Origin: Conexibacter sp. CPCC 206217
GTDB lineage: Bacteria > Actinomycetota > Thermoleophilia > Solirubrobacterales > Solirubrobacteraceae
Assembly (NCBI RefSeq): GCF_030646165.1
Contig: NZ_JAUTDO010000003.1
Span: 372,001 to 436,000 of the forward strand
DNA length: 64,000 nt
Reading direction: 5' to 3'
The translations under genes were made by a program, and so were the position numbers. Of this stretch, positions 1 through 10,034 are shown piece by piece (positions within the stretch are counted from its first letter, which is position 1; every line of letters begins with the position of its first letter). The notes below the pieces were generated by a model. The model was not told the DNA's origin. It did not search any database and was given only the letters and a program-made list of their open reading frames with translations.

Positions 1-89
1 GCACGTGCAGGAGCTTATCTCAGGATTCGGCGCGCGTGCGCCGCGGCGGACGCCAGCCGGTTGCCGGCGAGGCCGCGGGAGCGATCGGG

Positions 90-95
90 TACCTT
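90..95 (+). promoter_or_regulatory. -10 box of the zinc-ribbon gene
   Basis: TACCTT lies six bases before the ATG at 102. This spacing puts the transcription start at or next to the start codon, so the mRNA is probably leaderless. No Shine-Dalgarno sequence precedes the ATG. Confidence 0.45.
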
Positions 96-101
96 TGGCG
101 C

Positions 102-1151
102 ATGGAGTCCTCGCCCGGGCACGTCTGCCCAAGCTGCTCGGCGGCCGCCGACGAGAACCAGCACTGGTGCCTGGAGTGCGGCGCCGAACTGCCGCACAAG
201 CGACGTTCGACGATCCGGCCCGTCGTCGGCATCGCGACGACGCTGACGGTGCTCGTCGGCGCGGCCTCCGCGGCCGGCTTCACGCTGCTGCAGGACGGCA
301 CGCAGCCGCCACCACCCGCCGCGACGATCGCGCAGCAGCCGCCGCCGGTGACGACGCCGCCGGTCGACACGACCGCGACCGCCCCGCCGGCCGACACGAC
401 GCTTCCCGACACCTCCGCGGACACCCCGCTGCCGAGAACCGGTGGCGGTAGCGGTGGCGGTGGCAGCTCCAGCGGCGGCGGCAGCAGCTCCTCGGGCGGC
501 GGCACCAGCAGCCCGGGGACCTCCACCCCGCCCCCGGCCGACGTGCCGGACCTGTCCGACGACGTCGACACCTCGACGCCCAATCCGCCGCCGCCCGACG
601 ACGACGCGGGCGACGTGGACGGCGGTGACGGCAGCGTCGAGGACGAGAACTCCGGCGACGGCGCGAGAACCGAGAGAAGAACGGCGCCGCCGAAGCTCGT
701 CGACACGAACATCGCGCTCGGCGCGGTGGCGGTGCCCTACGCCCCGTACGCGACCGGCGACGAGGATCTCGGCGACGCGGGCGCGGCTGTCGACGGCAAC
801 AAGTCGACGGCCTGGCAGACGCCGCCGTTCGACGATCCCACGGCCCACCCGCAGCTCGGCATCTACGTCGACTTGGCGACGGCCGAGAGACTGACGAAGC
901 TCGTGCTGACGACGCCGACGCCCGGGATGTCGTTCGAGGCCTACACCGCGACGAGCGGGCCGCCGAAGTCGATCACCGCCGCCGGCTGGTCGCACGTGGC
1001 GACGAAGGAGAACTCGCCGGGCAAGACGACGATCGAATTGCCCGACGGCTCGAAGGCGCGCTACGTGCTGATCTGGGTCACCGGCCTGCCGCAGGACAGA
1101 GATCACGCCGCGATCTCCGAGCTGGAGATCTACTCCAAGCAGCCGCAGTAG
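102..1151 (+). CDS. Zinc-ribbon, single-TM, discoidin-like protein
   Basis: A 349-residue membrane-anchored protein of unknown function. Residues 8-30 hold two CxxC pairs (CPSC and CLEC), a zinc ribbon of the kind found at the N-terminus of many actinobacterial membrane proteins. One hydrophobic segment follows (about 40-65), then a long low-complexity linker of Pro, Thr, Gly, Ser and Asp (about 75-205). The last 140 residues resemble an F5/8 type C (discoidin) beta-sandwich, with AAVDGNKSTAWQT followed by a strand-rich tail ending in SELEIYSK. The architecture suggests a cytoplasmic zinc ribbon and an extracellular ligand-binding domain held away from the membrane by the linker. ATG 102 is preferred over the upstream in-frame ATG at 36 because a -10 box sits at 90-95. 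The ligand cannot be inferred. Confidence 0.8.
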   Translation: MESSPGHVCPSCSAAADENQHWCLECGAELPHKRRSTIRPVVGIATTLTVLVGAASAAGFTLLQDGTQPPPPAATIAQQPPPVTTPPVDTTATAPPADTTLPDTSADTPLPRTGGGSGGGGSSSGGGSSSSGGGTSSPGTSTPPPADVPDLSDDVDTSTPNPPPPDDDAGDVDGGDGSVEDENSGDGARTERRTAPPKLVDTNIALGAVAVPYAPYATGDEDLGDAGAAVDGNKSTAWQTPPFDDPTAHPQLGIYVDLATAERLTKLVLTTPTPGMSFEAYTATSGPPKSITAAGWSHVATKENSPGKTTIELPDGSKARYVLIWVTGLPQDRDHAAISELEIYSKQPQ

Positions 1152-2080: not shown

Positions 2081-2797
2081 GTGGGACCACAGACAGAGCC
2101 ACTGCCGCCGTCGGCGCTCTCCGAGTCGCGCAGCTTCACGGTGCGCTCACGCCGCGAGCGGCTGCTGACGGCGATGGCGCAGGTCGTCGCCGAGGACGGC
2201 TACGGCGCCGCCTCGGTCAGCAAGGTCGTGACCGCGGCCGGGATCTCGCGCAACAGCTTCTACGAGCACTTCGCCAACAAGGAGGACTGCTTCCTGGCGG
2301 CGTATGACGCGACCGTCGAGCAGGTGCTCGCGCGCGTCTCCGTCGCGACCGCGGCGACGAGATCGCGGCGGGCGGCGCTGGAGGCCGGCTTCGCCGCGTT
2401 CCTCGGGTTCGCGGCCGAGGAGCCCGAACTGGCATGGCTGTGCGTCGTCGAGGTGCTGGCGGCCGGCCCGCGGGCGCTCGCGCGCCGCGACGAGGCGATG
2501 CGCCGCTTCGCGCTGTTCCTCGAAGAGACGCGGGGCCGCGGCGGCCCGGCGGTCGCGCCGGTGCTGACGGAGGTCGTCGTCGGCGGCATCTACGAGGTGA
2601 TCTACGCGCGGGTCCTCAACCGCCGCACCGCGACGCTGCCGGAGTTGCTGCCGGACGTGATGTACGTCTGGCTGGCGCCGTTCGTGGGTACCACCCGCGC
2701 GACGGCCGTGCGCGCTGAAACGGCGCGCCGTCTCGGCTATGACGGCGGGCGCCTGCTGCAAGTCGCACCGGTCCACGGAAGAACGGGCAGGACATAG
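2081..2797 (+). CDS. TetR/AcrR family regulator (first of tandem pair)
   Basis: A 238-residue transcriptional regulator. The N-terminal TetR helix-turn-helix spans about residues 20-75 with the typical SRNSFYEHFANKEDCFLAAY segment. The C-terminal ligand-binding region is helical and less conserved. The start is GTG at 2081, six bases after a good -10 box. The stop abuts the ATG of the next gene with no gap, so the two are surely co-transcribed. The neighbouring genes give no clue to ligand or target; self-regulation is plausible. Confidence 0.88.
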   Translation: MGPQTEPLPPSALSESRSFTVRSRRERLLTAMAQVVAEDGYGAASVSKVVTAAGISRNSFYEHFANKEDCFLAAYDATVEQVLARVSVATAATRSRRAALEAGFAAFLGFAAEEPELAWLCVVEVLAAGPRALARRDEAMRRFALFLEETRGRGGPAVAPVLTEVVVGGIYEVIYARVLNRRTATLPELLPDVMYVWLAPFVGTTRATAVRAETARRLGYDGGRLLQVAPVHGRTGRT

Positions 2798-3526
2798 ATG
2801 TTTTCAGAGCGTGTCTATGGTCGCGAGGTGGCCGCGGCATCAGATCGATCCCCTCAGCGCCTCCCGCGCGGCCGGCACGGCCTCCCGCGTCGCTTCATCG
2901 TGCACAACCAGCGCGAGCGGATGCTGCTCGCCGTCGCCGAGGCCGTCGCCGAGCAGGGCTACGCGACGACGACCGTCGCGGACATCATCGCCCGCGCCCG
3001 CCTCTCGCGCCGCACCTTCTACGAGCACTTCACCGACAAGGAGGAGTGCTTCCTCGCCGCCTACGACACCGTCGTCGAACAGATGCTCGCGGGCGTCGGG
3101 CACTCCTACGAGCAGGCGGGCAGAGAGTGGACCCACCGCGTCCACGACGGCTTGGAGGCGTTCGTCCACTACCTCGTCGACGAGCCTGCCTTCGCGCGCA
3201 TGTGCATCGTCGAGGTCGTCGCGGCCGGTCCGGAGGCGCGCGGCCGTCGCGACGCCGCGATGCGCGTCTTCGTCGACTTCCTCGCCCCCGGCCGCGAGCA
3301 GGCGCCGAGAGGCGTCGTCGTGCCCGAGCTGGCGGCCGACATAGTCGTCGGCGGGATCTACGAGATCATCTACACGCGCCTGCTGCGCAACTCCGCGGAG
3401 GAGCTGATCGATCTCCTCCCCCAGCTGCTCTACTGCGCCCTCGTCCCGTTCGTCGGGCACAGAGGCGCGGAGAGAGCGGTGCGCGAGAACGAGGCGCGCA
3501 AGGCGGCGGAAGCATCCGAAGCTTGA
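2798..3526 (+). CDS. TetR/AcrR family regulator (second of tandem pair)
   Basis: A 242-residue TetR-family regulator paralogous to the preceding gene. The HTH helix reads SRRTFYEHFTDKEECFLAAY, almost the same as upstream, and both proteins share VVGGIYE.IY in the C-terminal domain. An N-terminal extension of about 35 residues rich in Arg and Pro precedes the HTH, so a later start is possible, although the ATG directly follows the upstream TAG. The two proteins may form heterodimers or bind the same operator (inference). Confidence 0.85.
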   Translation: MFSERVYGREVAAASDRSPQRLPRGRHGLPRRFIVHNQRERMLLAVAEAVAEQGYATTTVADIIARARLSRRTFYEHFTDKEECFLAAYDTVVEQMLAGVGHSYEQAGREWTHRVHDGLEAFVHYLVDEPAFARMCIVEVVAAGPEARGRRDAAMRVFVDFLAPGREQAPRGVVVPELAADIVVGGIYEIIYTRLLRNSAEELIDLLPQLLYCALVPFVGHRGAERAVRENEARKAAEASEA

Positions 3527-4020: not shown

Positions 4021-4537
4021 TGATCTGCCCCCGGTTTCATGGAGTTCGGGTTCTAGAGTCCTTGGCTGAGAAAGGACTCTCATGTCCCGTAGGTATCCCC
4101 CTGACATTCGTCGCCAGGTCATTGAACTCGCGCATGCCGGCACGTGCGTCAAGCAGTTCGCTTCGACGTTCGGGGTGACCGACGCGCGCTCGGGATGGCG
4201 ATCCGACACCGCAACGGACGGGACGGCCTCGTCATACACTCCGACCGCGGCGTGCAATTCACCTCCTGGGCCTTTAGCAACAACGTTCGCAACGCCGGCC
4301 TGGCGCCGTCGATGGGAGCGGTCGGCAGCCCTACGACAACACCATGGTCGAATCGTTCTGGGGCCGCATGTAGGTCGAGCTCTTCAACCGCCGCCGCTGG
4401 ACCACATCGAGCACTGGCACGACACCCGCCCACGTCACAGCGCCCTCGGCATGCGCACCCCAGCTGAATACGAAACCCTCCACACCACCACCCAAGCAGC
4501 CTGACTCCAGAACCCCGACTCCACCAACACGGGGCAG
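4021..4537 (+). mobile_element. Internally deleted IS3-family element
   Basis: The ends are imperfect inverted repeats. The left one starts TGATCTGCCCCC at 4021. The right one, read on the minus strand from 4537, starts CTGCCCC, and both continue with matching blocks (TGGAGT, GGGTTCT, GAGTC). The outermost four or so bases of the right repeat are missing, cut by the second remnant. About 0.5 kb remains of an element normally about 1.2 kb long. It cannot move by itself. Confidence 0.8.
4082..4504 (+). pseudogene. IS3 transposase remnant (OrfA start fused to OrfB end)
   Basis: The frame opens like IS3 OrfA (MSRRYPPDIRRQVIELAHAG) and after about 35 residues a deletion joins it to the end of OrfB. 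The integrase part is split over frames: HSDRGVQFTSWAFSNNVRN in one frame, YDNTMVESFWGRM followed by a TAG in another, and RHSALGMRTPAEYE back in the first. Two frameshifts, one internal stop and the loss of the first DDE aspartate region make it clearly non-functional. Confidence 0.85.
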
Positions 4538-4875
4538 CGCTTCTCGATCAGCCCGGAGATCCCGGTTTGGGCCATCAGCCGCGCCACGCGCTTTCGGCCG
4601 ACCCGGACGCCGTGCCGCATGCGCAGCTCGGCGTGGATGCGCGGAGCGCCGTAGACGCCGCGGTTGGCGGCATGGATCTCCTTGATCTGCTCGGTCAGCC
4701 AGGCGTTGGTCAGCTGCCGGTCTGAGGGCGCGGTCGCCCACGCGTAGTCGGCCGAGCGCGAGACGTCGAGCAGGTCGCAGATGACGGAGATCGGGGTGCG
4801 GGCCTTCTCGGCCGAGATCAGCCGGTGGAAGCTCACCGAATCTCGGTCCGCCGCGAAGAAGGCCGCGGCTCGTTT
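4538..4875 (-). pseudogene. Second IS3 OrfB fragment, opposite orientation
   Basis: On the minus strand the segment encodes the start of an IS3 OrfB: the HTH_21 region (VICDLLDVSRSADYAW), then IHAANRGVYGAPRIHAELR and GRKRVARLMAQTGISGLIEKR. It ends exactly where the first remnant begins, so the whole DDE catalytic part is gone. SADYAW replaces the usual SGYYAW. The two remnants lie tail to tail and come from different IS copies. The outer limit near 4875 is approximate. Confidence 0.8.
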
Positions 4876-5238
4876 GGTGGGCCTTCCACGCCAACCGTCG
4901 CATCGATCTCGACGTGGCATCGCGCGTGTATGACCAGGCGGTCGCGGAGGGACAGCAAGCCGCGACACCGGGAAGCGTCGCTGATCCGGTGGTTGACCGT
5001 CGGCGACCATGCTAGGCGCTACCGACGCAGTTGCCCCGCGGCCCAAGGTCACCGCATTCTGCTCTGCGGTGCGAGAAACTCTGCGATGATTGAAGTATCT
5101 GACAAGTCGCGCCCGAGCAATCTCCGATCGGAGCCGCGGCAAGCTTGACGGGCTGCGCTGGACCTTCCGAGACTCTTTACGAAGTGATGCATGCATCCAT
5201 CGCCGAGGGATTCGTGCCTACGAGGTTACGCCGTCATT
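4876..5238. other. Degraded stretch, no intact gene
   Basis: No supportable gene. One plus-strand open piece ending at a TAG at 5013-5015 reads HANRRIDLDVASRVYDQAV and could be the tail of a lost gene, but I do not recognise it. GC content falls from about 5100 onward, marking the edge of the low-GC accessory region. Confidence 0.5.
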
Positions 5239-5787
5239 CTATTCATCGCGCGCCTCGTACTCGGAGCGATCGACGACTTCACCATTCTTGTCACGTGCGA
5301 TGAGCGCAACGTGTGATGGTTCGATAACCAGCGCAATGGCGACGAACGCGCCGGTCGTGATGTCGAAACGAACCAAGTGCCGCTGCTGCGATGAGACTAC
5401 CTCCAATTCGGCGACATCCTGCCCGACGAACCCCCCCTGGACGACGTATCCCTCGCCGGTGTCAGTATTCGATGTCCAGCCGACATGACCAAGGAACCCG
5501 AACCCGGATCCTTGAGATCGGTACGGGCCAGGATAAGACGGCCATGGATGTGAGTTTTCGTGATCGGCTTCTTCATCCCAGATTCCCCTGACCCGCTGGT
5601 GCACGGTGCAGGTCCACTCGTACCGATTGGTGCCGCGTCTTCGAATAGTCGCAACAACGCCGTAGTCGCCTGCTACGTCGCGACCATAGAGTCGCTCGCC
5701 TGCAGCAGGGTCGCCAACCGTCGCGCCGAAGCGCGGCGGTGAGAGTGTCAATGCATCGGCGGCAGACTGATACATAGCAGGCGTCAC
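5239..5787 (-). CDS. Partner of the large secreted protein, unknown function
   Basis: A 182-residue protein not recognised as any family. It starts at GTG 5787, whose four bases GTGA overlap the stop of the large gene upstream, so translation is very probably coupled. There is no signal peptide or membrane segment, so it is likely cytoplasmic. It is rich in Gly, Asp, Arg and Trp. The C-terminal part alternates beta-like segments (HLVRFDITTGAFVAIALVIE, then HVALIARDKNGEVVDRSEYE), suggesting a beta-rich fold. GC content is clearly below the window average, as in the adjacent end of the large gene, which suggests that both were acquired together. An immunity or accessory role for the large protein is possible but unproven. 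Confidence 0.7.
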   Translation of the reverse strand: MTPAMYQSAADALTLSPPRFGATVGDPAAGERLYGRDVAGDYGVVATIRRRGTNRYEWTCTVHQRVRGIWDEEADHENSHPWPSYPGPYRSQGSGFGFLGHVGWTSNTDTGEGYVVQGGFVGQDVAELEVVSSQQRHLVRFDITTGAFVAIALVIEPSHVALIARDKNGEVVDRSEYEARDE

Positions 5788-8700
5788 ATCCCGAGAAAGG
5801 CGTTGGTACGACAGGAATCTCCCATGCCGCCACCATAATCCAATTCCGTTACGCCTGGAGCTATGACTGTTTCGAAGGGTGTGTTGAAGATGTATTTTCC
5901 GTCCCATCGCAAGAGCGAATTTGGCTGTGTCATGACTGTCTGGTGTGCGTAATACGGCCGCCAATCAGGCCGGTCGCGCTTGTCATACGAGTTGTCGGTG
6001 TGCTTTCTGTTGGAGCCATCTGGCGCCTTCCATCTGAGTTGCAATCTCGTCCAGGCGACGTTCGTACGCCAAGGGCGACGCACCTGGTAGTGCACAAAAT
6101 ACTGATAGAACAGCTGTCCGGCTCTGTTGTAACCGACTTGTTTCAGATGAATATGAAAGTGAGTCTGAAACGTCCCATATTGGCTGAGGAGGGTGATATC
6201 GGAGTTCTTAGGACAATAGGGAGATACCCCTCCGGACGCTTGTGCTGGCGGCAGCGGTGAGCCTCTTCCCCAATCCTTCCAGTACCACCCGGGTGGCTGA
6301 TGGTCTGCCCATTCTGGGGGCTCGGTCCAGCCATCGTCGGTTGACTCGGGGGCGGCGGTGATGACCCGAAGGTTTTGTACCGAGTAGCGATCGAGGTAGT
6401 CCCAAGCTTCGACGCGGACCACATCGTCGCCGACGAACTTGCTCCGGTCAGCAACCCACACTTCGTCCCGTCTCACGCAACTTGGCGTGCTGCAAGGCGA
6501 TGCGGAATACAGATATGTCTGAATTTCAGTACCGTCGAACAACAGGCGCATTCTCTTGACGCCGACGGGTTGGGATGCGCTCAGGAACAGCGTCGGTCTC
6601 GCGGGCATCTGACCGTCACCGGCGTGATTGACAAGGTCACCGGAAAGCGTGATCACTGGCGCGCCGACGACACCATCCAGGACAAGAACTCCTGGGTCGG
6701 TCGCCGTGATGTCGTTGCCTCGAGGAACAAGATCCAAAAAGCCTTGCGGGACGATCTGCGTTCTTGAAAGGTCGAGGCCGTAGGTCGTCGCGACCTCCAC
6801 AGAGGCCACAAGAAAGCGCTGCCCCCGACTGACGTAGTACACCCCCGCATCGCCGTCCATGCGAAACAGTCTCGCCGCCGTCGTGATGTCGGCACCTCTC
6901 GACAGGGACCCCAACGCTCCGTCAGGCAGCACGTGCACGGTCGCCGGGTTGATTCCGAAATGTTCCAGCGATTGGACCCAGTAGCGAGCGCCTCTGCCGA
7001 TGTAATAGACCGCCGCAGTGCTTCTTTCGCGGATCAGGCTGTTGTAGCTGTCGGCGAGAATCTTGTTCTTGTCCGCTTGGCGCAGCAAGTTCCAGATCTC
7101 GTCGTAGTTCGGCTTGGTCCACAAGTCGTTGCGCAGCGTGTCGAAGTCTGATTGCTCGTCGAGGTTGCCGTACATCCAGGCGGCCTTGTAGAAGGTGACG
7201 TTCCAGTTCATTCTCGCGACGAAGCCGGCGGCGTCGTGCACGTCGACGCGCAGTCTTCGAGTTTCGTCGTTGCCCCATCTCAGTGTAGGGTCGAGCGGGT
7301 CGATTTCGAACTCGCCGGTGAAGTCGCGTCTCTCGCAGTACACGTCGCAGGTCCGTGATCTACTGCCAAGTCTCGAATCTGCTCCGGTCGTCGTGTCGAG
7401 CAAGTCGATTGCTGTGACGCCGCTCCCGTCGTCTCCGGCGACGACGGTCAGTCTTCCTGTCGTGATTCGGTCTTGGTCGCGGCTTTCGTAGAGTCCGCCT
7501 GAGATTGCCATGAACGGCGGGTTGTTGTCGATCACGAACTTCCACTCTTGCGTCACCACATGGCCGTTGACGGCCGGGAGCCCCGGCGGGTGGTCAGTGA
7601 CGACCGTTCTGATCGTGTGAAGGCCGTCTCTGAAGCCAGAGGAGTCGAACCGGAAGCGGGCGTCGGCGCCGTTGGGGCGGTAGGCAGCGTCGGACGGGTA
7701 GAGCGAGTACCACCATCCGACACAGGTTCTGGATGGGTCGAGGTAGAGGATGGTCGCGCAGTCGTCCAGGCAGTTCGAGCCGTCCGTTCTGGTGCAGCCT
7801 CTGTAGAGCGCGTTGGTGTAGGTGCCGAGCGGTCTTCCGTCGATCGTCGCTGAGATCGACTTCACGCCCTGTCGATCCCAGGCCATGACGGTGAAGTCGA
7901 AGATGCCTGTCGCGATGACCGGCGCCGGCGCCCACACGAGATCGTTCCACGTCGTCGGGTTGGAGAGTCTGTGGTAGGTCGAGACCAGCGGCCAGTCATC
8001 GACAGGTGTCTCAGCGGGTTCCTCTGGCGCGAGCGCCGCGAGGTCGATCAGCACGTCCTGCGTGTGGCCGTCGGCGAGTTCGAACCGGAGGATCCCGATG
8101 TCACCGCTGAGTCTCAGTTCGCAGCCGGAGTCTCTGACTACGACGGTCGCGAGCGTGCAGTTGTCCGACTCGCTTCCGGCCCATTGCAAGTTGCCGTGGA
8201 CGATCTCGACGCCCTCGATTTCAGCTGTTTGCGCACCGACGTTCTTGATCACGAGGGGGAAGTCGCCTGCTGCGATGTCCGGCTGCAGGAACGGTCTGTC
8301 TGCGCGGCTCGGAAGTTCGGGAGGCGTCGGTGGGTACGCGGTCAGTCTGACGTCGACGTCGGTGATCTCGTCGCCATCCCACAGGCGCACCGTCCCGCTA
8401 TTGCCGATGAGTGCCAGCTCGCATGAGCCACTCTGCGCCGGGAGCGAGTTGCCTGAGCATTTGTCGGCATCCGGCATATCGGCCCAGGCGAGGTCGCCGT
8501 CGAGGATTTCGGCTCTGACCAGGTCGGCTCTGTACTCGCCGCGATTCACGATCGTCACACGGCCGGCGCGCCAGGATGCCCAGTCGTCGACCTCGAGTCT
8601 CGGGCTGATCGTCCCCTGCGCGATCTCGAGAACGGGTCGCTTCGAGAAGTCCGGATTGCTGGAAGATGCGATCGTAGTCCACCCTCTGGCGCAGAGGATG

Positions 8701-10034
8701 TCCTCCCCTCCGTACATGCACTCGTAACTTTGTGTCTCGCCCATCGCCTGACTCTGCAGCAGCAGGCTCGCCGGCGCATCCTCGGTGAGCGTCAGCGGTC
8801 CCTGCGGATAGCCCTTGCGCACATCGTAGATGTGCTCGTGCCAAGACCAAGCAATTTCGGTAACGTCGAACTCGAAGCTTGCTCTCGCTGCGGGATCATC
8901 GACTGTGGCCGTCTTCCAAACATCGTCGTAGCTGTCACCGGCGGTCAGCCGCAGACCGCTGGTCTGGCCGGGCAGCTCGGAGTCCTTGTAGAAGATCGCG
9001 CGCGCGCTCGTGACTCTCTTTGTCGGCGAGAGCAACTCGGTTACATCACCGAAGTCGATGCTCGCGCCGGCCTCTTGGTACTCCGATCCCTCTGAGCCGA
9101 CCCACCCGCCGACCTCATGCAATGGGACGTTCGGGTTGTTGCAGTCCGGTGACGATCTGACGTAGTTCTGCGCCAGGTTTCCTACGAGTACCGCAGTCAG
9201 CGACTGCGAACACGACCACCCGGTCGTGCTTGAGTACGGCAGGATCGTGGGGTCGACCGTGACCGGCCAAACGCGCTCGTCGGCCCTCAGCCACTCGCGA
9301 TCCAGCGCAAATGAAAGCCGATAGTCGCCGCCGTCGAGCCGTCTGAGCGCATACTGGGGCGCGGGCGCAGTCGCTGGAGCGGCCGCTGCATCGACCGCGA
9401 CCGGCGCCGGGATCACGAATGCGACTCTGGCGCCACGCAGGATCTCGATCTCACCACCTCTAGCGAGTCGCGCGCCCAAACCGTCGGAAAGTCGTACGCG
9501 GTATGAGAAGGCGCTCGAAGCAAACCTGTCTGCAAGGATCAGGTCTTCTTTCAAGCCCTCCGGCACGGCACGCATCTTGACGGCAACGCCCGGAAGCGCC
9601 TCGTCATAGGTTGCGACTTCGTCTCGCGCCGTCGCCGGGGCGTTCGCGCCCTCAACCCACGTGCGAACTGAGCCGTCGGCCGTCGAGATCGACGCTCCGC
9701 CGGCCGCTCCATCACCAAGAGAGGACGGCAGCATCACCTGCGCGGGACCCGCCGAGACCTCGTAGCCTGGCTGCTCGTCCCCGAGGCGCAGCATCAAGTC
9801 AAAGTCACGCCACCTTCCGGCGCCGTCCTTCCATCGAACCGGCCCGGTCGCGATCCGCGTCACCTGGCCTCGATCACGGGTCTCCCAAGTCGTCGAGACA
9901 GCCGTCCGCTTTGACGTCAGTTCCCGGACCGCATCCCGCGGTCGGGTCGTCGCATCCGCTGCCATCGTTGGCGTTGCCGCCAACGCTGTACCCGCAGCGA
10001 CAGCAGCAGCCGTCGCCAACACGCGCCATCTCAT
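5784..10034 (-). CDS. Large secreted multidomain protein, DNRLRE/WapA-like N-terminus
   Basis: 1416 residues. A signal peptide at 1-25 (hydrophobic AAAVAAGTALAA, cleavage after TMA) supports ATG 10034 rather than the upstream in-frame ATG at 10172. Residues about 30-265 resemble the region before DNRLRE domains in WapA/RHS-type surface proteins, ending WPVTVDPTILP. About 270-475 is a DNRLRE-like beta domain. Two 85-residue ASH-like repeats (about 480-565 and 583-668) each carry a Cys pair ending GSCEL or SGCEL. About 700-955 is Ig-like with several cysteines. At 1006-1110 come two copies of a 50-residue repeat (YYIGRGARYWVQS, YYVSRGQRFLVAS). Residues 1272-1416 form a C-terminal domain with a Cys near each end. 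RHS/YD repeats are absent. GC falls towards the 3' end: 28 of 60 bases at 5881-5940 and 24 of 60 at 6121-6180. Role unknown: adhesin or effector. Confidence 0.85.
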   Translation of the reverse strand: MRWRVLATAAAVAAGTALAATPTMAADATTRPRDAVRELTSKRTAVSTTWETRDRGQVTRIATGPVRWKDGAGRWRDFDLMLRLGDEQPGYEVSAGPAQVMLPSSLGDGAAGGASISTADGSVRTWVEGANAPATARDEVATYDEALPGVAVKMRAVPEGLKEDLILADRFASSAFSYRVRLSDGLGARLARGGEIEILRGARVAFVIPAPVAVDAAAAPATAPAPQYALRRLDGGDYRLSFALDREWLRADERVWPVTVDPTILPYSSTTGWSCSQSLTAVLVGNLAQNYVRSSPDCNNPNVPLHEVGGWVGSEGSEYQEAGASIDFGDVTELLSPTKRVTSARAIFYKDSELPGQTSGLRLTAGDSYDDVWKTATVDDPAARASFEFDVTEIAWSWHEHIYDVRKGYPQGPLTLTEDAPASLLLQSQAMGETQSYECMYGGEDILCARGWTTIASSSNPDFSKRPVLEIAQGTISPRLEVDDWASWRAGRVTIVNRGEYRADLVRAEILDGDLAWADMPDADKCSGNSLPAQSGSCELALIGNSGTVRLWDGDEITDVDVRLTAYPPTPPELPSRADRPFLQPDIAAGDFPLVIKNVGAQTAEIEGVEIVHGNLQWAGSESDNCTLATVVVRDSGCELRLSGDIGILRFELADGHTQDVLIDLAALAPEEPAETPVDDWPLVSTYHRLSNPTTWNDLVWAPAPVIATGIFDFTVMAWDRQGVKSISATIDGRPLGTYTNALYRGCTRTDGSNCLDDCATILYLDPSRTCVGWWYSLYPSDAAYRPNGADARFRFDSSGFRDGLHTIRTVVTDHPPGLPAVNGHVVTQEWKFVIDNNPPFMAISGGLYESRDQDRITTGRLTVVAGDDGSGVTAIDLLDTTTGADSRLGSRSRTCDVYCERRDFTGEFEIDPLDPTLRWGNDETRRLRVDVHDAAGFVARMNWNVTFYKAAWMYGNLDEQSDFDTLRNDLWTKPNYDEIWNLLRQADKNKILADSYNSLIRERSTAAVYYIGRGARYWVQSLEHFGINPATVHVLPDGALGSLSRGADITTAARLFRMDGDAGVYYVSRGQRFLVASVEVATTYGLDLSRTQIVPQGFLDLVPRGNDITATDPGVLVLDGVVGAPVITLSGDLVNHAGDGQMPARPTLFLSASQPVGVKRMRLLFDGTEIQTYLYSASPCSTPSCVRRDEVWVADRSKFVGDDVVRVEAWDYLDRYSVQNLRVITAAPESTDDGWTEPPEWADHQPPGWYWKDWGRGSPLPPAQASGGVSPYCPKNSDITLLSQYGTFQTHFHIHLKQVGYNRAGQLFYQYFVHYQVRRPWRTNVAWTRLQLRWKAPDGSNRKHTDNSYDKRDRPDWRPYYAHQTVMTQPNSLLRWDGKYIFNTPFETVIAPGVTELDYGGGMGDSCRTNAFLGM

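What the first reader, a model, noticed from the sequence alone, without database searches (positions are those of the whole stretch)
5239..10034. Large secreted multidomain protein with falling GC and a coupled small partner
A 1416-residue secreted protein starts with a DNRLRE/WapA-like region but has no RHS repeats. Its 145-residue C-terminal domain has a Cys near each end. The coding GC drops towards the 3' end (24 of 60 bases at 6121-6180, against about 72 percent in most of the window). A 182-residue cytoplasmic-looking protein starts on the GTGA of its stop. High-GC shared front, low-GC variable end and an adjacent small gene are the layout of polymorphic toxin/immunity pairs. The cysteine-bounded end could equally be an adhesion or binding domain.
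Basis: partly seen in the sequence, partly recalled or inferred. Interest (0 to 1): 0.7.

Follow-up and report, generated by a model that had tools for sequence, protein, structure and literature searches.

The report
Secreted toxin-style protein with coupled partner
A soil-type actinobacterium carries a large secreted protein that shares its front with relatives but ends in its own 150-residue tip, followed directly by a small opposite-charged partner gene: the layout of bacterial toxin and immunity pairs, here with a tip and a partner that match no known family, and with toxicity untested.

Summary
In detail: a 1416-residue secreted protein (10034-5784, minus strand) has a GC-poor 3' end, the lowest-GC stretch of the window, and a 182-residue gene starts on the GTGA of its stop. 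The polymorphic-toxin reading is supported as a layout. The front of the protein recurs in more than 20 Solirubrobacterales genomes. Over 28 proteins the first 450 residues form one BLAST cluster and the last 130 fall into 18. Relatives end in RHS cores with unrelated tips, an Amidase_6 cell-wall hydrolase, DUF6973 or trypsin-like domains, and most have a small gene directly after the stop, one of them a SUFU immunity protein. A same-genus protein matches residues 480-1110 at 40% identity, then has an unrelated tip and an unrelated, equally coupled lipoprotein gene: a direct swap. The window's tip (net +7) and partner (-9) match no Pfam, NCBIfam or PDB entry. The tip recurs once, as a stand-alone secreted protein in a Solirubrobacteraceae MAG, followed by another acidic gene; similarity between the two partners is not significant. 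Structure models were too poor to use. Toxicity, target and neutralisation are untested. Most likely a new, narrowly distributed effector/immunity pair on an RHS-less relative of WapA-like proteins.

The parts
5784..10034 (-). large secreted multidomain protein, 1416 aa, start ATG at 10034
   Evidence: signal peptide read directly
9225..9950 (-). shared N-terminal domain, residues about 29-270, recurring in RHS-bearing and RHS-less relatives
8601..9224 (-). second front segment, residues about 271-478, aligned to L037 (23%) and L035 (27%); CBM96/DNRLRE-like only by position in relatives and by its RPVLE end motif
   Evidence: not confirmed by profile
6705..8597 (-). middle section, residues about 480-1110 (Ig-like/choice-of-anchor-like repeats and a YYIxxGxRxWV-type module), 40% identical to a same-genus protein with another C-terminus
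   Evidence: Big_7 sub-threshold at 709-745
5787..6236 (-). C-terminal tip domain, residues 1267-1416, pI 9.5, net charge +7, Cys1274 and Cys1408; lowest GC of the window
   Evidence: single other relative
5239..5787 (-). candidate immunity gene, 182 aa, GTG start overlapping the stop (GTGA), pI 5.1, net charge -9, no signal peptide
   Evidence: no family match
4435..5196 (-). decayed IS3-type transposase piece (HTH_21) directly behind the pair
   Evidence: E 2.8e-19

Best explanation
A polymorphic effector/immunity pair. The large protein leaves the cell by a Sec-type signal peptide. Its shared front and Ig-like middle act as a surface-displayed carrier. The exchangeable C-terminal 150 residues, a basic, probably all-beta and disulfide-closed domain, are the effector delivered to neighbouring bacteria. 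The acidic 182-residue protein, translationally coupled through GTGA and without an export signal, is its immunity protein, binding the tip inside the producer and so protecting siblings. Because this partner looks cytoplasmic, whereas the sister protein with a cell-wall amidase tip is followed by a lipoprotein, the tip most likely acts inside the target cell; a nucleic-acid or ribosome target fits its charge but is a guess. Shown: secretion signal, shared front, swapped ends, coupling, opposite charges, GC fall. Inferred: toxicity, delivery, disulfide, binding and neutralisation.
For: Front shared by relatives in 25 of 201 related genomes at E<=1e-3. First 450 aa of 28 proteins form one cluster (287 of 378 pairs match), last 130 aa 18 clusters. 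Ends of relatives: RHS core plus varied tips, Amidase_6, DUF6973, trypsin-like, Vps62. By my reading 23 of 27 relatives have a plausible small gene at or near the stop: small membrane proteins, lipoproteins, secreted or cytoplasmic proteins. One is SUFU, E 3.3e-16, a catalogued immunity superfamily (PMC3482391). The two DUF6973 tips in different genomes are both followed by homologous small proteins (E 6e-8), one weakly BamE-like; membrane-anchored BamE-like proteins are described as immunity proteins of other polymorphic toxins (PMC12419801). In a same-genus genome, 40% identity over residues 480-1110 is followed by no significant match between tips (best pair E 0.016) or partners, both coupled to the stop (GTGA here, TAATG there). 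3' GC falls by 0.053 on average in 27 relatives and 0.130 here, 0.000 in 82 control ORFs. Tip +7/partner -9 here; +18/-7 in the only relative, where the tip is a stand-alone secreted protein directly followed by a gene, matching the stand-alone toxin cassettes of PMC3482391.
Against: No catalytic signature or known toxin family in the tip and no usable structure (mean pLDDT 41 and 50.5). The gene behind the only other copy of the tip is not a significant relative of this partner (BLAST pair E 0.007; 74 of 2000 shuffles reach the local score; not among the best of 1168 ORFs), so co-inheritance of the pair is not shown. That other copy is split by a frame slip. A disulfide-closed tip with signal peptide and a cytoplasmic partner are not an obvious match of compartments. 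In high-GC operonic genomes an adjacent small gene is common anyway, and no background rate was measured.
Confidence: 0.68

Rival explanations
1. The tip is an extracellular binding or adhesion domain: a small disulfide-closed beta domain at the end of a long surface protein, and the downstream gene is an unrelated or accessory protein that happens to be coupled.
For: All-beta alternating pattern with terminal Cys residues (the latter low confidence); stand-alone secreted relative; no catalytic family; partner homology between the two loci not significant.
Against: Sister proteins with the same front end in enzymes and toxin-type tips with their own coupled small genes; the tip and partner are swapped as a unit relative to the same-genus protein; low GC and narrow distribution fit an exchanged cassette.
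Confidence: 0.2
2. The tip is a secreted hydrolase or effector aimed at non-kin, such as prey or polymers, as for the trypsin-like ends without partner (L051, L058), and the small gene is a chaperone or regulator.
For: Two relatives with trypsin-like ends have no small partner; the Amidase_6 relative shows that enzyme ends occur.
Against: Here a partner is present, coupled and of opposite charge; no enzyme family is matched.
Confidence: 0.08
3. A decaying or chimeric locus: the 3' end is foreign DNA left by the adjacent IS3-type element and the pair is no longer functional.
For: HTH_21 transposase piece about 40 bases behind the partner; low GC and GC3 of the 3' end.
Against: Both frames are open to the end with no stops, the coupling is precise, and the GC fall is shared by 24 of 27 relatives.
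Confidence: 0.04

Closest known systems
[quoted passage not shown] 2012, PMC3482391)
   Same: Signal peptide, shared front, exchangeable short C-terminal domain, adjacent small gene, stand-alone cassette elsewhere.
   Different: Tip and partner belong to no catalogued family in the libraries searched; toxicity untested.
RHS/WapA-type secreted proteins of Gram-positives and actinobacteria
   Same: The front is homologous to that of RHS-core proteins in the same family (L037, L041, L035).
   Different: No RHS repeats and no RHS-associated core in this protein; Ig-like/anchor-type repeats take their place.
Same-genus protein L034 (Amidase_6 tip plus lipoprotein)
   Same: 40% identity over residues 480-1110, 3' GC fall, coupled downstream gene.
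   Different: Lacks the N-terminal domain; unrelated tip (Amidase_6, E 1.6e-19) and a lipoprotein instead of a cytoplasmic-looking partner.
Stand-alone secreted tip homologue in Solirubrobacteraceae MAG JAUYGN010000062 (L050/L100)
   Same: About 30% identity over the domain including both Cys and the APDG and YAH motifs; acidic gene directly downstream.
   Different: No large carrier; reading frame split in the middle; downstream protein not significantly similar.

Membership tests
Polymorphic toxin system | N-terminal secretion signal and shared front | tested here: met
   signal read; relatives in 25 of 201 genomes, nearly all by the front
Polymorphic toxin system | Different C-terminal domains on the same front | tested here: met
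   one cluster of fronts, 18 clusters of ends; swap within the genus
Polymorphic toxin system | Small gene immediately downstream | tested here: met
   GTGA overlap; most relatives likewise
Polymorphic toxin system | Stand-alone cassettes of the toxin domain elsewhere | tested here: inconclusive
   one stand-alone copy in L050/L100, but its frame is split
Polymorphic toxin system | C-terminal domain is toxic and the partner neutralises it | not testable with these tools
   needs expression and binding assays
Polymorphic toxin system | Known toxin or immunity domain family in this pair (usual, not required) | tested here: not met
   no Pfam, NCBIfam or PDB match
RHS/WapA proteins | RHS/YD repeats and RHS-associated core | tested here: not met
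   absent here, present in relatives
RHS/WapA proteins | DNRLRE/CBM96 domain in the front | tested here: inconclusive
   no library hit; hhalign probability 2.7%; relatives have it

The most novel reading that the evidence does not exclude
The tip and its acidic partner are a new toxin and immunity family, with a disulfide-closed all-beta effector, carried by an undescribed RHS-less branch of a large polymorphic toxin family of Solirubrobacterales in which RHS and non-RHS carriers share one front.
Probability: 0.45. Interest if true: 0.55.

Novelty: new member of a known kind. Interest (0 to 1): 0.42.

Why it matters
It would add a toxin and immunity family outside the libraries searched and point to a whole family of exchangeable secreted effectors in Solirubrobacterales, a soil lineage for which the literature searches found no report on polymorphic toxins. 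The front gives a handle to find many more tips and partners.

Tried and rejected
Partner matches in G142 and G191 lie antisense or out of frame of ordinary genes: chance. Weak class-wide tip hits (L066-L073 read) are other-frame translations of high-GC DNA: rejected. Weak class-wide hits of the partner profile were not examined one by one. Partner half-domain search: the three hits read look unrelated. Plasmid and viral collections: nothing. AlphaFold models too poor; Foldseek with the partner model gave nothing below E 1e-3 and is not used. Homology of the two downstream genes, which I first suspected from the alignment, fails the shuffle and ranking tests, so I do not claim it. PDB sequence search: nothing credible.

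Full report
Observation. The large gene runs 10034..5784 on the minus strand (1416 aa, Sec-type signal peptide) and the partner 5787..5239 (182 aa) starts on the GTGA of its stop. The tip DNA has GC 0.520, below every 450-bp sliding window tested in the 64-kb window (mean 0.709, sd 0.042, minimum 0.538), and GC3 falls from about 0.8 in the middle of the gene to 0.596 at the 3' end. Pfam and NCBIfam find nothing above threshold in either protein.

Shared front, different ends. In 201 related genomes, 25 have a match, almost all to residues about 5-270. I fetched the surroundings and extracted 27 relatives of 907-3126 aa. Pfam and NCBIfam show RHS repeats, DUF6531 and RHS-associated cores in many, and in others Amidase_6, DUF6973, trypsin-like or Vps62 ends. 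With the window protein added, the first 450 residues of all 28 link into one BLAST cluster, while the last 130 fall into 18 clusters, 15 of them single proteins. The nine-member end cluster probably reflects the RHS core still inside the last 130 residues, so the true diversity of tips is higher.

A swap within the genus. L034 (G005, same genus) matches residues 480-1110 at 40% identity (E 1e-126); beyond that the tips do not match significantly (best pair E 0.016). Its tip is Amidase_6 (E 1.6e-19) and its downstream gene, coupled by TAATG, is a 193-aa lipoprotein with no similarity to the window's partner. It also lacks the N-terminal domain, so the middle section travels with different fronts too. 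Carrier section kept, tip and partner exchanged: this is the core of the polymorphic layout.

Partners in the family. By reading the ORFs after each relative, 23 of 27 have a plausible small gene at or near the stop: small membrane proteins after RHS ends, lipoproteins, a TPR protein, and SUFU (E 3.3e-16), which PMC3482391 lists as a common immunity superfamily. Two DUF6973 tips in different genomes are followed by homologous small proteins (E 6e-8), one weakly BamE-like (E 0.027, below cut-off); BamE-like membrane-anchored immunity proteins are described in PMC12419801. This count is by eye, on mechanical ORFs, without a measured background rate. The two trypsin-like ends have no partner.

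GC. The 3' fall is shared: mean 0.053 over 27 relatives (24 positive) against 0.000 over 82 control ORFs, and 0.130 in the window gene.

Tip and partner. The tip is basic (pI 9.5, +7) and the partner acidic (pI 5.1, -9). The tip has one relative in all searches (201 relatives, 349 class genomes, 396 phylum genomes, and a pattern scan of the collection of 84,980 species genomes): a secreted stand-alone protein in Solirubrobacteraceae MAG JAUYGN010000062, with both Cys, APDG and YAH kept, split by a frame slip. The pattern scan uses only two short peptides and would miss diverged copies. Directly behind that relative lies another acidic gene, again with opposite charge (+18 and -7). Alignment suggests shared motifs between the two downstream proteins, but shuffles (74 of 2000 as good) and ranking among 1168 ORFs do not support homology. 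I therefore count position and charge, not homology.

Structure. Two AlphaFold jobs gave mean pLDDT 41 (tip, single sequence) and 50.5 (partner, two sequences). Both are beta-rich in the models; nothing more is concluded. Foldseek on the partner model was uninformative.

Mechanism. Most likely a surface-displayed carrier with an exchangeable effector tip and a cytoplasmic immunity partner. The lack of an export signal on the partner, against the lipoprotein next to the amidase tip, suggests action inside the target cell. Toxicity, delivery, the Cys1274-Cys1408 disulfide and neutralisation are inferences.

Membership. It meets the positional criteria of polymorphic toxin systems; it is not an RHS protein (no repeats, no core); the DNRLRE label of its front is inconclusive. 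Novelty lies in the tip and partner families and in the RHS-less carrier, not in the kind of system.

Noticed in passing
window 4082-5196: Decayed IS3-type transposase pieces (HTH_21 at 4435-5196) directly behind the pair.
   Followed up: partly
L053 5280-5690 and L054 5586-6014: DUF6973 ends are each followed by homologous small proteins, one weakly BamE-like: a candidate toxin and immunity pair for DUF6973.
   Followed up: partly
L055 3629-4189: SUFU immunity protein behind a 3126-aa DNRLRE/RHS protein whose end looks nuclease-like.
   Followed up: partly
L051 10326-13580 and L058 2329-5052: Trypsin-like ends on the same front, without a coupled small gene.
   Followed up: no
window 36-1151: Protein with CxxC zinc-ribbon-like start, a membrane segment and an F5/8 type C domain.
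   Followed up: no
window 2081-3526: Two adjacent TetR-like regulators in tandem (by reading; not scanned).
   Followed up: no
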